A stretch of 5,933 bases of DNA from the NCBI GenBank assembly GCA_019246575.1, contig JAFAQG010000925.1, positions 1-5,933 of the forward strand. The letters run 5' to 3'. The notes below the pieces were generated by a model. The model saw only the letters and a list, made by a program, of their open reading frames with translations, did not search any database and was not told the origin of the DNA. Of this stretch, positions 1 to 5,933 are shown in pieces (position 1 is the stretch's first letter; each line of letters starts with the position of its first letter). The translations under genes and the position numbers were made by a program. Source of the stretch: Acidobacteriaceae bacterium. Its GTDB lineage: Bacteria > Acidobacteriota > Terriglobia > Bryobacterales > Bryobacteraceae.

Positions 1-129
1 GTAGTGCTTGCTGGTCCATTTCTGAGGCCCTAGAGCCAACCGGCATTCGGAAGAATAAATGTGCTGATGCTCTATATAGTCGCGCCCTGCGACGTTCTTG
101 ACTGGTTGATTAAAATGCTGATTGCTCAC
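1..129 (-). CDS. Partial protein with N-terminal NVAGRDYI element (3' end beyond left edge)
   Basis: An open frame starts with GTG at 129-127 and continues without a stop to base 1, giving the first 43 residues of a protein. The start overlaps the TGA stop of the upstream gene as GTGA (129-126), an arrangement typical of translationally coupled operon genes; only a weak AAGGG sits 2 nt upstream. Residues 4-20 (Q-H-F-N-Q-P-V-K-N-V-A-G-R-D-Y-I-E) align without gaps to residues 13-29 of the upstream protein, with 10 of 17 identical, including N-V-A-G-R-D. After this element come H-Q-H-I-Y-S-S and then a more ordinary sequence (G33-P-Q-K-W-T). The body of the protein lies outside the window, so no domain can be named. 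That such tags precede the effector or NTPase part of defence or signalling proteins is an inference. The frame is short, but the conserved element and the coupled start make it convincing. Confidence 0.7.
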   Translation of the reverse strand, partial: MSNQHFNQPVKNVAGRDYIEHQHIYSSECRLALGPQKWTSKHY

Positions 130-404
130 TGCCCTTGCGTCAAAACGGCCTTCAGCCCCTCGAATATAGCGCTAGTGGCGAGCCCCGAAATGTAGGGATT
201 CTGCGCTAGCACGCGCAGCTGGCGAAGCAATCCGGCCTTCTCACGATCTGGGATCGTCGCGGAGTGTTCAACAGCCATTTCCAAAACGCGCAAAAGCTGG
301 ATGGACGTGACATTCGTCTGAATGATATCCCGGCCTGCAACGTTTCCCACGGCAGCGTGGAAATTCTGATGAACCACATTTGAATCGGTTAAATTGTCCG
401 CCAA
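126..404 (-). CDS. Small protein with N-terminal NVAGRDII element and helical tail
   Basis: This is a complete small gene of unknown function, first in a two-gene minus-strand unit. Read from TTG at 404 it encodes 92 residues. An AGAGGG ribosome-binding site (415-410) lies 5 nt upstream of that TTG. A second possible start is GTG at 377-375 (residue 10). It has no clear binding site, but it would place the shared motif at exactly the same distance from the N-terminus as in the downstream protein. Residues 13-29 (Q-N-F-H-A-A-V-G-N-V-A-G-R-D-I-I-Q) hold the shared element. Residues 35-92 look alpha-helical and amphipathic (L-L-R-V-L-E, then I-P-D-R-E-K-A-G-L-L-R-Q-L, then N-P-Y-I-S and F-E-G-L-K-A-V-L). 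There is no signal peptide or membrane segment, so the product is probably cytoplasmic. The stop overlaps the next start by 4 nt. It could be an adaptor, inhibitor or partner of the downstream protein; this is inference. Confidence 0.75.
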   Translation of the reverse strand: MADNLTDSNVVHQNFHAAVGNVAGRDIIQTNVTSIQLLRVLEMAVEHSATIPDREKAGLLRQLRVLAQNPYISGLATSAIFEGLKAVLTQGQ

Positions 405-409
405 AGCTG

Positions 410-415
410 CCCTCT
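410..415 (-). promoter_or_regulatory. Ribosome-binding site deciding a TTG start
   Basis: AGAGGG on the minus strand, 5 nt before the TTG at 404. It is the main reason to prefer the TTG start over the GTG at 377, which has no purine-rich sequence in front of it. Confidence 0.45.
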
Positions 416-627: not shown

Positions 628-762
628 GTGAGAACGCAGGGACTTTCTGCGACATACGGCGGCGGCATTTTTGCCGCAGGCTATCATGCGGTCATAGATA
701 CCGATTGGGACCGCAACCTTGCGGCGCTCAAAGGGAAAGCGAAAGTAGTTTTATGCAATTGA
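628..762 (+). CDS. Doubtful 44-codon frame overlapping the CBS gene start
   Basis: A GTG at 628 opens a frame that ends with TGA at 760-762, overlapping the first codons of the CBS gene (ATG at 753) by 10 nt. The translation has a protein-like look (G-G-G-I-F-A-A-G-Y-H-A-V-I-D-T-D-W-D-R-N-L-A-A-L), and the same frame stays open back to a TGA at 547. No ribosome-binding site precedes the GTG and I do not recognise a family. It could be a leader peptide coupled to the CBS gene, the tail of a decayed gene lacking its start, or chance. The same bases form GC-rich hairpins, which may explain the frame. Confidence 0.2.
   Translation: MRTQGLSATYGGGIFAAGYHAVIDTDWDRNLAALKGKAKVVLCN
662..724 (+). repeat. 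Cluster of GC-rich hairpins, two mutually exclusive
   Basis: Three inverted repeats lie in the leader of the CBS gene. The first is GCGGCA-TTTT-TGCCGC (662-677). The second has a 7-bp stem, TGCGGTC (687-693) with GACCGCA (709-715). The third is CCGCAA-CC-TTGCGG (711-724). The second and third share bases 711-715, so they cannot form together, which is the geometry of a switch or attenuator. There is no terminator-like U-run after either, and the CBS ribosome-binding region (about 741-745) lies just downstream. Regulation is only a possibility. Confidence 0.35.
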
Positions 763-1196
763 CCGAGCTAATGAGCAGGAATCCCGCCTGCTGTACGCCA
801 GCCACTCCGCTGCGAGATGTGGCTCGAATGATGATTGATTGCGATTGCGGAGAAATTCCCGTCGTGGATAGCAGAGAATCGATGCGGCCAGTGGGCGTCA
901 TCACCGATCGCGATATTACTTGCCGCACGGTTGCGGAAGCAAGAAACCCGCTGCAGATGACGGCGGCGGACTGCATGACAACGCCCTGCATTACCATCCA
1001 CCAGAGCGCTTCAATCGTAGATTGCTGTCATCTGTTGGAAGAGCATCAGATCCGGCGTGTGCCCGTGGTCGACGACAACGGGCGGTGCTGCGGGATTGTG
1101 TCGCAGGCCGACATCGCCCAGAAGATGGACCAGATGGCGGCGGAGGTGGTACGGCAGGTGTCGCAACCGGTACATCACCGGTCGCGCGAGCGATAG
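753..1196 (+). CDS. Cysteine-rich tandem CBS-domain protein
   Basis: This encodes a 147-aa stand-alone protein of two CBS domains, roughly residues 7-60 and 75-125. CBS pairs form a Bateman module that binds adenine nucleotides or similar ligands and usually regulates a partner. The typical end-of-domain motifs are visible: G48-V-I-T-D-R-D-I in the first domain and G114-I-V-S-Q-A-D-I in the second. Each repeat also has the I/V-P-V-V-D strand (residues 35-39 and 103-107). ATG at 753 is preferred because M-Q-L-T-E-L-M begins the domain and GAAAG lies 7 nt upstream; an in-frame TTG at 705 would add 16 unconvincing residues. The protein has 11 cysteines, including C-C pairs at 13-14, 91-92 and 112-113, which suggests redox sensitivity or metal binding. 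The C-terminus is short and basic (H-H-R-S-R-E-R). No effector domain is attached. It converges on pckG with a 135-nt gap in which I see no clear terminator. Confidence 0.9.
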   Translation: MQLTELMSRNPACCTPATPLRDVARMMIDCDCGEIPVVDSRESMRPVGVITDRDITCRTVAEARNPLQMTAADCMTTPCITIHQSASIVDCCHLLEEHQIRRVPVVDDNGRCCGIVSQADIAQKMDQMAAEVVRQVSQPVHHRSRER

Positions 1197-1331: not shown

Positions 1332-3176
1332 TTACATCCGGCAGATCAGCAGTTCGCGCTCATAGACGAGCTCAGGCGGCAGATGGTCGTGCAGGTCGAT
1401 GAAAAGCTCCTCGTGTCCGATCACTTCCGAGCGCCACGCAGCGCGATCGAAGGCTTGCAAATCAGCGAACTTCTCCTTGGGGAAGTCCAACCCGTTCCAC
1501 TCGATATCGGAGTACCGGGGCACCCAGCCGATAGGAGTTTCGACGCCGATTGCGCGGTTGCGCGCACGATCCACAATCCACTTCAACACGCGCATATTTT
1601 CGCTAAAGCCCGGCCAAACGAACTTGCCGTGAGCATCCTTACGGAACCAGTTCACATGGAAGATGCGTGGCGTTGCGGCGAGCCCGCGCTGCATGCGTAG
1701 CCAGTGCCGGAAGTAATCACCCATGTGATAACCGCAGAACGGCAGCATGGCCATGGGGTCGCGGCGAACCTTTCCAACCGCGCCTGCGGCGGCGGCGGTT
1801 GTTTCGGAACCCATGGTTGCGCCGATGTATACGCCGACACTCCAGTTGAAGGCTTGATAAATCAGCGGAATAGTTGAGGCGCGACGTCCGCCGAAGACAA
1901 TGGCGCTAATGGGCACGCCATCGGGCGATTCCCAATCGGGATCGATGGTAGGGCATTGAGAGGCGGGCGCGGTGAAACGTGAATTGGGATGCGCGGCGGG
2001 GGTGCCATTTTTCTGCCCGATTTCCGGTGTCCAGCGGTTACCGCGCCAATCGAGGCACTCGGCGGGAGGCTCATCCGTCAGACCTTCCCACCACACGCCG
2101 CCTTCGGGCGTCAGGGCCACATTCGTGAAGATGGTGTTACGCGCGAGCGTCGCGATCGCATTGGGATTGGTTTTCGGAGATGTTCCTGGCGCTACACCGA
2201 AGAATCCTGCTTCGGGATTGATGGCGCGCAGATAGCCTTCGGAATCGGGCTTGATCCAGGCAATATCGTCGCCGACGGTCCAAACCTTCCAGCCTTCGAA
2301 CCCTCTCGGCGGAATCAGCATGGCGAAGTTGGTCTTGCCGCAAGCGCTAGGGAATGCGGCCGCGACATAGGTTTTCTCGCCGTGCGGATCTTCAACGCCC
2401 AGGATGAGCATGTGCTCTGCCATCCAGCCTTCATCCCGCGCGATGTTGGATGCAATACGCAGCGCGAAACACTTCTTGCCAAGCAGCGCGTTGCCGCCGT
2501 AACCCGAGCCGTAGGACCAAATCTCACGGGTTTCCGGGAAATGAACGATGTACTTTTCGCGATTACACGGCCAGGGGACATCCTTCTGTCCCGGTGCAAG
2601 CGGCGCTCCCACCGAGTGCATGCAGGGCACGACGCGCTTCACATCTTTGTCGATTTCACGGAAAACGGGGAGGCCGATGCGGGCCATGATGCGCATGTTG
2701 ACAACGACGTACGGAGAATCGGTCAATTCAACGCCGATCTGTGACATCCGGGAATCGATCGGGCCCATGCTGAACGGAAGGACATACATAGTCCGTCCGC
2801 GCATGCAGCCGCGAAAGAGCTCCTTGAGTTTGCGGCGCATCTCAAACGGGTTGACCCAGTTGTTGGTGGGCCCGGCGGCTTCTTTGGAAAGCGAGCAGAT
2901 GAAAGTGCGGTCTTCGACGCGTGCTACGTCGCTGGGGTCAGAACGCGCGTAGTAACAGCCCGGCCAGAGGTCCTCATTCAGCTTGATGAACGTGCCGCTA
3001 TCGACCATCTCGGCGCAGAGGGAGTCATATTCTTCCTGCGAGCCGTCGACCCAGTGAATGGCTGCGGGAAGCGTAAGATCCGCCATCTTTTCTACCCAGC
3101 GGATCAAGTGTTTGTTCGAAGTAAGCGGGACAGCAGAACGGGAGTGCGCCGGGGGGATTGCCACTGAACTTTTCAT
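1332..3176 (-). CDS. pckG: Phosphoenolpyruvate carboxykinase (GTP)
   Basis: This cytoplasmic enzyme catalyses oxaloacetate + GTP = PEP + GDP + CO2, linking the TCA cycle to gluconeogenesis. ATG at 3176 gives 614 aa, near the usual length for GTP-type PEPCK of about 600-620. It is preferred because GGTGA lies 5 nt upstream; TTG at 3188 and GTG at 3185, in frame, would add four or three residues but lack a binding site. Numbered from the TTG, visible landmarks are: the substrate arginine in Y-Y-A-R (82); Y230 and the metal-site lysines in L-L-G-K-K-C (238-239); metal-binding histidine A-E-H-M (259); the P-loop F-P-S-A-C-G-K-T-N (279-287) with the family's reactive cysteine 283; the metal aspartates V-G-D-D (307-308); N-S-R-F (402-405); G-G-R-R (433-436); and the mobile lid [10 protein letters not shown] (460-469). 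All expected catalytic residues are present and the frame is intact. The gene stands alone on its strand. Confidence 0.97.
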
Positions 3177-3287
3177 TGCTTTCACCAATTTAGAACTAAA
3201 ACATATTAATCCAGGATAAATCGCTGGCTATCGACGGTTTGTAGTGGAACCTCTGTCACTGGCGATTCTGCTTAGGGGCAGTTCTGC

Positions 3288-3999: not shown

Positions 4000-5933
4000 A
4001 TGTTATCCCCATTTGCGAGGCTGGTTGGAAGACGGGCGGCAGGCGCGGCGCTCATGGCAGCGCTGGTCGTTTGCGCGTGCGCTCAAACACCCGGTGACGA
4101 CGAGCTCACGCAGGCTTACAAAGCGCTTGCCGAAAAAGATTACGATTCCGCAATCAGTCTGTTTCGAAGTGCGTTAGCGAAACACCCGGGAAACGCGGCC
4201 GCGCACAAAGACCTCGCCTACACACTCCTCAAAACCGGCGAGAACGCGGAAGCACGCGACGAATTCGAGGCCGCACTTCGCTTGAACTCGGCAGACGAAA
4301 CTGCAGCGCTCGAGTTTGCGTTCTTAGCCTTCGAAACGAAAGAGCCGATCGAGGCGCGTCGCACGTTCGACAGATTACGGAAACGGGGCAGCGCAGAGAC
4401 GCGAAGAACGGCCGAACAGGCCTTCCAGAATATAGATCAACCGCTCGCAGCAGGTATCGCACGGTGGAAACAGGCGCTTGCGAGTTCGCCGAATCCGAAC
4501 GATGTTTCGATGTTCAGCGCGCATTGGGAGCTGGCCCAACTGGCCGAGCTTCGGGACGAGCTGCCGCTGGCGGCGGAGCAATACGAGATCTGCCGCAAGC
4601 TGAAACCGGAACGGAGTGAGCTTCTTTTGATTCTGGCGCGCGTGTGGCAGCAGCTTAACCGCGTCGAAGAAGCGCATGCGGCGCTGCTGGCGGCCTCGCG
4701 TCAGACGGATTCGCGAACGGCCGAGCAGGCAATGGAACAACTCGGGCCGCGGTACCCGTATCCCTACGAATTCTTGAACGCGCTCGAGATCGATCCCCGG
4801 AACGTGCCGCTGCGGCGCGAGCTCGCGTTTCTGTATCTGGCAATGAACAAACAGCCCGAAGCGGTTGCACAGCTCGAAAAGGTCTTGACCATCGACCCGA
4901 ACGACCGGTTGTCGCGGGATCAGCTGGATGCAGTGCGCGGGGTTCCCAAGAAAGCGGCCGTTGTGTCGCCTCAAGAGAGCAGCCCGGCAGCAGTGGGCGT
5001 AAACCCGAGAGCGATGGGCATGAAGAGCTATGCGCTCGGTTACGCCCGAGACGCGATCAAATATCTTTCGCGCGCGCACCAGGAAAACCCGGACGATGCC
5101 GAAGTCATGCTGAAGCTCGGCTACGCCTACAACTATGCCAAAGACGACGCCGATGCGATTGCGTGGTTCGATCGCGCGCGCCATGGTAACGACCCGCAGA
5201 TCGCAGCCGAAGCGACAAAGGCTTTTCATAATCTGAACGGGGATACGCTGCCGCAGACCACTGTGTGGTCGCTGCCGATGTGGTCATCCCGCTGGCATGA
5301 CTTGATCGGTTACGGGCAGGCGAAGAGAACGGTTCCGCTGCCCTGGAACAGCTTCAACCACTGGTTCTCGCTGTATATTTCGACACGCTTCATGGGGGAC
5401 ATCAAGAGCAGCGTTCCGCAGCAGGCGATTACGCCGCAATATCTGTCTGAGAGCTCGGTGATCTTTGCCGGCGGTGTGTCGACCAGAACCTGGCATCACC
5501 TTTCAGGCTGGGCGGAAGCGGGCGAAGCGGTGAAGTATCTGCCCTTCCGCCACGATATAGGCACAGCCATTCCGGATTATCGCGGCGGGTTGACGTTTGC
5601 GAAGGGTTTTGGGCAGCTGCTTGGCAGCAACACGCCGGGAATGTTCTTCGAAACGACTGGGGATGCCGTCTACGTCAGCCGATACAACAAAGATTGGCTA
5701 TTCATCTCGCAGAATCGCGCCGGACGAACCTTCGATTTCTGGGACGGATCTTCGGCGCAAGTGCTTTTTAACGCAAATTACGAGCACGATTTAAAAGCTC
5801 AGTACTGGGCCAATACGGTCGAAATGGGCCCTGGGCTCAAAGTTCATCTGCCGTGGATGCGCCCAGGCGTTTACTTCTCTGCCGATTTCCTGCGCGGGGT
5901 GTACACGAATAATCAAGGGAATCCGAGGCGGCC
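4000..5933 (+). CDS. Secreted TPR protein with C-terminal envelope/beta-barrel-like region (3' partial)
   Basis: The frame is open from ATG at 4000 to the right edge (644 codons, no stop), so the C-terminus is missing. Residues 1-28 form a signal peptide: basic R7, R11-R12, a hydrophobic core A-A-L-M-A-A-L-V-V, and likely cleavage after A-C-A before Q29. Residues 35-68 and 69-100 are clear TPR repeats, followed by degenerate helical repeats to about 250. Further TPR-like units lie at about 270-303 and 335-398, the linker at 315-335 being rich in Ala, Pro and Ser. From about 420 the composition changes to alternating, aromatic- and Gly-rich strands (F-S-L-Y-I-S-T-R-F, W-A-N-T-V-E-M-G), like an outer-membrane barrel. 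TPR plus barrel is the layout of exopolysaccharide exporters (BcsC, PgaA, AlgK/AlgE type) and of NfrA-like surface proteins; which one is not decidable here. The start has no good Shine-Dalgarno. ATG at 3987, in another frame, has GGAAG 6 nt upstream. Confidence 0.85.
   Translation, partial: MLSPFARLVGRRAAGAALMAALVVCACAQTPGDDELTQAYKALAEKDYDSAISLFRSALAKHPGNAAAHKDLAYTLLKTGENAEARDEFEAALRLNSADETAALEFAFLAFETKEPIEARRTFDRLRKRGSAETRRTAEQAFQNIDQPLAAGIARWKQALASSPNPNDVSMFSAHWELAQLAELRDELPLAAEQYEICRKLKPERSELLLILARVWQQLNRVEEAHAALLAASRQTDSRTAEQAMEQLGPRYPYPYEFLNALEIDPRNVPLRRELAFLYLAMNKQPEAVAQLEKVLTIDPNDRLSRDQLDAVRGVPKKAAVVSPQESSPAAVGVNPRAMGMKSYALGYARDAIKYLSRAHQENPDDAEVMLKLGYAYNYAKDDADAIAWFDRARHGNDPQIAAEATKAFHNLNGDTLPQTTVWSLPMWSSRWHDLIGYGQAKRTVPLPWNSFNHWFSLYISTRFMGDIKSSVPQQAITPQYLSESSVIFAGGVSTRTWHHLSGWAEAGEAVKYLPFRHDIGTAIPDYRGGLTFAKGFGQLLGSNTPGMFFETTGDAVYVSRYNKDWLFISQNRAGRTFDFWDGSSAQVLFNANYEHDLKAQYWANTVEMGPGLKVHLPWMRPGVYFSADFLRGVYTNNQGNPRR

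What the first reader, a model, noticed from the sequence alone, without database searches (positions are those of the whole stretch)
1..404. Overlapping gene pair whose two proteins share the same N-terminal NVAGRD tag
Seen: two minus-strand genes overlap by GTGA, and both proteins carry Q-x-F-x-x-x-V-x-N-V-A-G-R-D-x-I near the N-terminus (10 of 17 identical, no gaps), followed by unrelated sequence. The N-V-A-G-R-D part is encoded by AAC GTT GCA GGC CGG GAT in one and AAC GTC GCA GGG CGC GAC in the other. Four of six codons thus differ only synonymously, which points to selection on the peptide rather than a recent DNA duplication. Known: in bacterial NLR-like and other conflict systems, adaptor and effector genes side by side can carry matching short motifs (including amyloid-type motifs) that join the two proteins. 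Inference: this pair may be a similar module, with a small helical partner and a larger effector starting at 129. The motif does not match any such class I can name with certainty.
Basis: partly seen in the sequence, partly recalled or inferred. Interest (0 to 1): 0.8.

Follow-up and report, generated by a model that had tools for sequence, protein, structure and literature searches.

The report
Peptide tag shared by neighbouring genes
Two overlapping genes of a soil bacterium begin their proteins with the same short tag, and a like tag links phage repressors to neighbouring, mostly membrane, proteins, which hints at an unrecognised way of coupling two proteins made from one operon.

Summary
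Two minus-strand genes overlap by GTGA and both begin with Q-x-F-x(3)-V-x-N-V-A-G-R-D-x-I (10 of 17 identical; 0 of 5000 shuffles). The tag is conserved in 14 metagenomic relatives of the small protein. A tag profile built only from viral contigs picks the two window frames out of 26,836 frames (32.1 and 18.6 bits; next 6.3).

The larger result lies outside the window. By my judgement 51 viral contigs carry the tag at the N-terminus of a membrane or small protein. In the 49 with upstream sequence a tag-like C-terminal tail was read on a protein encoded upstream: an XRE-type regulator in 47, a truncated frame in L141, another frame in L147. Some tails are clear, others weak. Burkholderia phages KS5, AP3 and Carl1 are named examples. 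Between the window family and two partner families only the tag aligns.

Best reading: a mobile docking tag that couples co-expressed proteins. An amyloid nature is untested; four published peptides do not match. The second window gene leaves the contig after 43 codons and no relative was found, so 'larger effector' is unproven.

The parts
126..404 (-). Gene 1: 92-aa protein, N-terminal tag then helical region (TTG start, TGA stop)
   Evidence: 14 relatives, aligned; model (helices 27-47, 53-68, 70-90; mean pLDDT 64.4)
321..368 (-). Tag of gene 1, QNFHAAVGNVAGRDII (residues 13-28)
   Evidence: V19, V22, A23, G24, D26 invariant in 15 rows, Q13, F15, R25 nearly so; 32.1 bits to a profile of viral-contig tags
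1..129 (-). Gene 2, first 43 codons only (GTG start), runs off the contig
   Evidence: no relative found with its start
73..120 (-). Tag of gene 2, QHFNQPVKNVAGRDYI (residues 4-19)
   Evidence: 18.6 bits to the same profile, second best of 26,836 frames; 0 of 2000 shuffles reach its score
126..129 (-). GTGA overlap of gene 1 stop and gene 2 start
   Evidence: Read. Comparable 4-base overlaps of regulator stop and partner start in L124, L138, L139 (ATG) and, if TTG starts, L114 and L127
132..136 (-). AAGGG, ribosome-site-like, before gene 2, inside the end of gene 1
   Evidence: Read; inference
410..414 (-). GAGGG, ribosome-site-like, before gene 1
   Evidence: Read; inference. No sigma-70-like promoter found in 1-760

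Best explanation
The tag is a short, mobile docking module placed on the ends of otherwise unrelated proteins that are encoded in one operon, so that they assemble with each other. In temperate phages it sits at the C-terminus of an XRE-type regulator (in KS5 and Carl1 annotated as the phage's own repressor) and at the N-terminus of a protein encoded downstream, usually membrane-anchored. In this probably acidobacterial genome it sits at the N-termini of a small helical protein and of a second, unidentified protein whose genes overlap. Shown: the tag, its conservation, its recurrence in neighbouring genes, unlike sequence outside the tag. Inferred: that tags bind each other (perhaps as beta-strands; they are unstructured in the single-chain models), that this couples a regulator or adaptor to a membrane sensor or effector, and that the window pair works in the same way.
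For: Pair likeness beyond shuffles. Conservation of the tag in 14 relatives. Tag profile from viral contigs finds both window frames first and second of 26,836. 48 of 59 scanned loci with an N-tag have an XRE-type regulator within 3 kb upstream on the same strand; in 47 of the 48 its C-terminus reads as a tag (tails judged by eye). In a profile test on 1847 frame C-termini the best 14 are 13 upstream frames and one tagged partner. Three consecutive tagged genes in L113. Named phages KS5, AP3, Carl1. Profile comparison of the window family with two partner families aligns only the tag, 18 columns at E 8.7e-6 and 23 columns at E 3.6e-9. Within-locus tags slightly more alike than shuffled pairs, 10.9 against 10.1 of 20, P 0.028, 9 loci.
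Against: No binding was tested. The C-tags of the L112 and L133 types score near background in the objective tests (2.2 bits or less; 3.1-5.9 bits, mixed with unrelated frames). Many of the loci are near-identical, so they are not independent. The within-locus preference is weak and rests on nine loci of which four C-tags were shortened by one residue by hand. No XRE-type gene is seen beside the window pair. The second window protein is unknown. No tag was recognised in 398 Pseudomonadota and 396 Acidobacteriota genomes with the tag alignment, at unknown sensitivity.
Confidence: 0.55

Rival explanations
1. The tag is a new bacterial amyloid signalling motif: one partner is switched on, its tag folds into a cross-beta seed, and this templates the partner's tag and switches on a membrane effector.
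For: Same logic as published motif pairs at the ends of neighbouring gene products (PMC8086366; PMC12261475 section 3.3). The tag is short, Q/N/G/V-rich and unstructured in the models. By eye the C-tags resemble the Methanothrix peptide of PMC8086366.
Against: That peptide scores no better than many of its shuffles (210 and 83 of 2000 reach it with the two profiles); the other three peptides do worse. No NLR gene was seen. BASS profiles themselves were not available for a test.
Confidence: 0.25
2. Both tagged proteins bind the same third partner (a host protein or a surface of one) and not each other.
For: Core residues A-G-R-D are constant whether the tag is N- or C-terminal, as expected for a peptide read by a common receptor.
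Against: The tags come in neighbouring genes, and no third gene was seen to be constant around them (one search shows only a limited neighbourhood; not searched systematically).
Confidence: 0.2
3. The tag is a hitch-hiking end sequence, spread by recombination at gene joints, with no function in pairing.
For: Tags lie at gene joints, often with a 4-base overlap; phage cargo regions are exchanged as modules (recalled).
Against: In the window pair 6 of 10 shared residues use different codons and codon-position identity is 10, 14, 6 of 17; the tag is conserved in 14 relatives. This speaks for selection on the peptide.
Confidence: 0.1
4. The likeness is chance, or frame 2 is not a gene.
For: Frame 2 has only 43 codons in the window and no relative was found.
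Against: 0 of 5000 shuffles; second best of 26,836 frames with an outside profile; overlap and ribosome-site-like stretch.
Confidence: 0.03

Closest known systems
Bacterial amyloid signalling sequences (BASS) of Bell-domain/NLR gene pairs
   Same: A short motif shared by the ends of two proteins encoded side by side (PMC8086366, passages and section 13)
   Different: Partners here are an XRE-type regulator and a membrane or small protein, or a small helical protein and an unknown one; four published motif peptides do not match; aggregation untested
phrog_6521, phage 'membrane protein' (KS5 gp12, AP3 gp38)
   Same: Its first 24 or so positions match the window family's tag (best E 3.2e-4 among 15 rows)
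   Different: The window's small protein matches hardly beyond the tag and is half as long
Type II toxin-antitoxin pairs
   Same: Upstream HTH protein with a tail, overlapping downstream gene (layout recalled)
   Different: Both partners carry the same tag; the HTH protein is annotated as the phage's repressor in KS5 and Carl1; toxicity untested

Membership tests
Bacterial amyloid signalling motif (BASS) systems | Short motif shared by neighbouring gene products | tested here: met
   for the window; for viral contigs
Bacterial amyloid signalling motif (BASS) systems | Motif sequence resembles a known BASS motif | tested here: inconclusive
   Only four published peptides compared, none above shuffles; BASS profiles not available
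Bacterial amyloid signalling motif (BASS) systems | One partner is an NLR | tested here: inconclusive
   No NLR domain among ten viral-contig proteins scanned with Pfam; second window protein unknown
Bacterial amyloid signalling motif (BASS) systems | Motif forms amyloid fibres | not testable with these tools
   Needs peptides
phrog_6521 membrane protein | Match over the whole 243-position profile | tested here: not met
   Window protein matches positions 3-24 only, E 0.28; best relative positions 3-57
Type II toxin-antitoxin pair | Upstream gene encodes a DNA-binding antitoxin | tested here: inconclusive
   Window gene 1 has no Pfam match; among 15 rows only weak single hits, one to an HTH model at E 0.062
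Type II toxin-antitoxin pair | Downstream product is toxic and neutralised by the upstream one | not tested
   Needs expression

The most novel reading that the evidence does not exclude
Temperate phages carry an unrecognised signalling device in which the immunity repressor and a membrane protein with an outer two-cysteine domain, encoded in the same operon, are joined through matching peptide tags, so that an event at the envelope can hold, free or polymerise the repressor, or the repressor can hold an effector in check. Soil acidobacteria use the same tag on a pair of cellular genes.
Probability: 0.3. Interest if true: 0.9.

Novelty: new variant of a known kind. Interest (0 to 1): 0.7.

Why it matters
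If true, a repressor that decides between lysogeny and lysis is wired to the membrane by a peptide tag. That would give prophages a direct way to sense the envelope and would extend matching-tag assembly beyond NLR-type immunity. It also offers a simple handle, matching tags in neighbouring genes, for finding the partners of unknown proteins.

Tried and rejected
Direct relatives of gene 1: genome-contig scan with A1, 50 pattern stretches, none confirmed; the genome search with A1, 1 of 11 genomes at E up to 1 and 7 of 396 at E 0.019-0.095. L081-L088, the loci of those hits, hold no N-V-A-G-[RS]-D. Viral contigs with gene 1 or A1: 15 and 14 stretches, none confirmed. tblastn: gene 1 in plasmids one match at E 0.6, in phages none, P0008 in phages none; gene 2 in plasmids four at E 5-8. 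L132 and L130 partners in phages none, L132 partner in plasmids none.

Tag in whole genomes: a DNA pattern for N-V-A-G-[RS]-D gave 17 sites in 15 of 396 genomes, against 5 sites that I count for the reversed control pattern; none looks like the tag in its frame. phrog_6521 gave 6 of 297 genomes, none of them over its first 19 positions. Tag alignment A2 gave 0 of 5, 5 of 398 and 5 of 396 genomes, at 18-20 bits over part of the tag; taken as chance and not opened.

Families: PADLOC Aga_HEPN on 6 of 15 rows, best E 0.0043, over the helical part, and other weak hits were taken as noise. Fold searches: best E 1.4 for gene 1, 0.35 for a phage partner. A defence role for the partners was considered; PADLOC gave only weak hits for seven of nine partners or none, apart from the TIR gene of L113, which is a neighbour and not a tagged gene.

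Dropped before counting: 8 of the 59 loci judged chance by eye from the frames (L135, L143, L144, L145, L148, L155, L157, L174); the script found no regulator in any of the eight. L123, L125, L128, L154 and L156 came up in scans but were not among the 59. L138 came up through its C-tag.

Full report
WHAT WAS CLAIMED AND CHECKED. Gene 1 (126-404, minus, TTG, 92 aa) and gene 2 (GTG at 129, minus, open at base 1) overlap by GTGA. Both have a ribosome-site-like stretch. The ungapped match is 10 of 17; 0 of 5000 shuffled pairs reach it. Identity by codon position is 10, 14 and 6 of 17, and of the 10 shared residues 4 use the same codon.

THE SMALL PROTEIN. A protein search gave 15 hits among 16 candidates, one of them the window's own protein, so 14 relatives, 83-99 aa, 59-77% identical. 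One bears the name Acidobacteriaceae bacterium (P0008). In 15 rows V19, V22, A23, G24 and D26 are invariant and Q13, F15, R25 nearly so (P0013 lacks Q-x-F, P0012 has H for R). The model has helices 27-47, 53-68 and 70-90; residues 1-29 have pLDDT below 50, and the mean is 64.4. Pfam, NCBIfam, PADLOC and solved structures give nothing convincing, nor does Foldseek. 8 of 15 rows end in QGQ. In the window these codons also make the ribosome-site-like stretch of gene 2, a hint and no more that a coupled second gene is conserved.

THE SECOND PROTEIN. Only 43 codons lie in the window and the contig ends there. Two searches with its start, padded to 252 and 85 residues, found no candidate sharing three words. 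Its size and nature are unknown. The host is probably acidobacterial: the closest PEP carboxykinases among the 80 loci kept (of 589) are 84-86% identical, from MAGs labelled Acidobacteriaceae, Bryobacteraceae, Bryobacterales, Terriglobia and, in one case, Planctomycetaceae.

THE TAG ELSEWHERE. A PHROG scan linked the tag to the N-terminus of phrog_6521, a phage 'membrane protein' (10 of 15 rows at E up to 10, best 3.2e-4). A scan of viral contigs with Q-x-F-x(3)-V-x-N-[VIM]-A-G-[RS]-D gave 11 stretches, L112-L122. In ten of them the tag found lies near the N-terminus of a frame unlike the window's; in L114 it lies at the end of a regulator. Further patterns gave 17, 43, 19 and 0 stretches, overlapping sets.

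THE NEIGHBOURS. In L113 three genes in a row carry the tag: an XRE-type regulator at its C-terminus, a 120-aa protein and a longer one at their N-termini. By script, 59 loci have an N-tag; 48 have an XRE-type regulator within 3 kb upstream on the same strand (phmmer to seven seeds). In 47 of the 48 its C-terminus reads as a tag, by eye for the weaker types; in 42 of the 47 it ends within 170 bases of the partner's tag, while L118, L140, L175, L180 and L188 have about 0.7-1.3 kb between. In L147 the tag is on a frame between regulator and partner. The 11 loci without a regulator are 8 that I judge chance, L149 and L182, which have hardly any upstream sequence, and L141, whose regulator is cut but whose C-tag is present. 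So 49 of 49 judged-real loci with upstream sequence have an upstream C-tag. These are not 49 independent events; many contigs are near-identical.

A CONTROL. A profile of 20 distinct N-tags was run on the last 50 residues of 1847 frames of the loci of the first scans. The best 14 are 13 upstream frames and one tagged partner; the 15th, 12.2 bits, is unrelated. Five of the 13 had themselves been hit by the search patterns (L114, L138, L139, L140, L142), so 8 were found independently. The C-tags of the L112 and L133 types score near background, and with a mixed profile 3.1-5.9 bits among unrelated frames. I accept them by eye and because intermediate forms exist (L114, L181, L186, L189). Within-locus likeness exceeds shuffled pairs only slightly, 10.9 against 10.1 of 20, P 0.028, nine loci.

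NAMED PHAGES. One partner found five records, of three Burkholderia phages, KS5, AP3 and Carl1, all Peduoviridae. In KS5 gp11 (note: repressor) ends RQNFEGASIGQQVTGDVTAPFSINMG... and gp12 (membrane protein) begins MNQKFDGEIGQVAGGDV; AP3 and Carl1 are alike. Papers: of PMC3091744 12 of 16 passages found, of PMC5247547 5 of 5; they give the annotations and no shared motif.

PARTNER TYPES. One family has tag, small helical domain, in some members a coiled coil, one long helix taken as membrane-spanning, and a C-terminal domain with two conserved cysteines (model of L130, mean pLDDT 75.5, tag unstructured). A second is a membrane-like protein of about 130 aa. A third is small, 49-61 aa, tag plus a presumably helical stretch. 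L113 has a zinc-ribbon-like one (PF07282 below cut-off), L149 another. Membrane segments were read by eye and from the model; no predictor was run. The window family aligns to the second and third types over the tag only.

THE WINDOW JUDGED BY THE VIRAL TAG. The profile of viral-contig N-tags, run on the window and 80 PEP-carboxykinase loci (1.13 Mb, 26,836 frames in all), ranks the two window frames first and second, 32.1 and 18.6 bits; the next is 6.3. Of 2000 shuffles each none reaches them.

AMYLOID? Published motif pairs follow the same logic. By eye the Methanothrix peptide of PMC8086366 resembles the C-tags, but 210 and 83 of 2000 of its shuffles score as well. I therefore keep amyloid as a rival.

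LITERATURE. 'NVAGRD' is in no paper of the library, 'VAGRD' only in one on mathematics. Searches on repressor, membrane protein, amyloid, shared motif or exclusion terms gave none that looked relevant (listings only). PMC8086366 was seen in passages and section 13, PMC12261475 in outline and section 3.3, PMC8195603 in two passages. Most subscription papers are not in the library.

VERDICT. Docking of co-expressed partners is likely but untested, and the window pair itself is incomplete.

Noticed in passing
L113:3977-4828: Near the three tagged genes lies a gene with a CAP12/Pycsar-type TIR domain (PF10137, E 1.5e-39; PADLOC PDC-S35, E 2.3e-115), a candidate defence gene.
   Followed up: partly
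L172:8267-8419 and L178:10226-10384: Between regulator and tagged partner lies a small frame beginning M-T-[SY]-I-G-Q-[LV]-A-G-[QH]-[DN], tag-like itself, overlapping the regulator's end.
   Followed up: no
L114, L127, L138, L184: Here the tagged partner is a small protein without an evident membrane segment (49-61 aa), closer in plan to the window's small protein.
   Followed up: partly
PHROG profile phrog_17537: L113's zinc-ribbon-like partner matches positions 37-100 and L139's membrane-like partner 121-231 of the same 234-position profile, as if they were halves of one longer protein.
   Followed up: no
window 1332-3188 (-): GTP-type PEP carboxykinase by its relatives (name recalled; one search found 589 relatives), used only to place the host.
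   Followed up: partly
window 705-1196 (+) and 4000-5931 (+): Frames that look like a CBS-domain protein and a TPR protein (recalled, no family search run).
   Followed up: no
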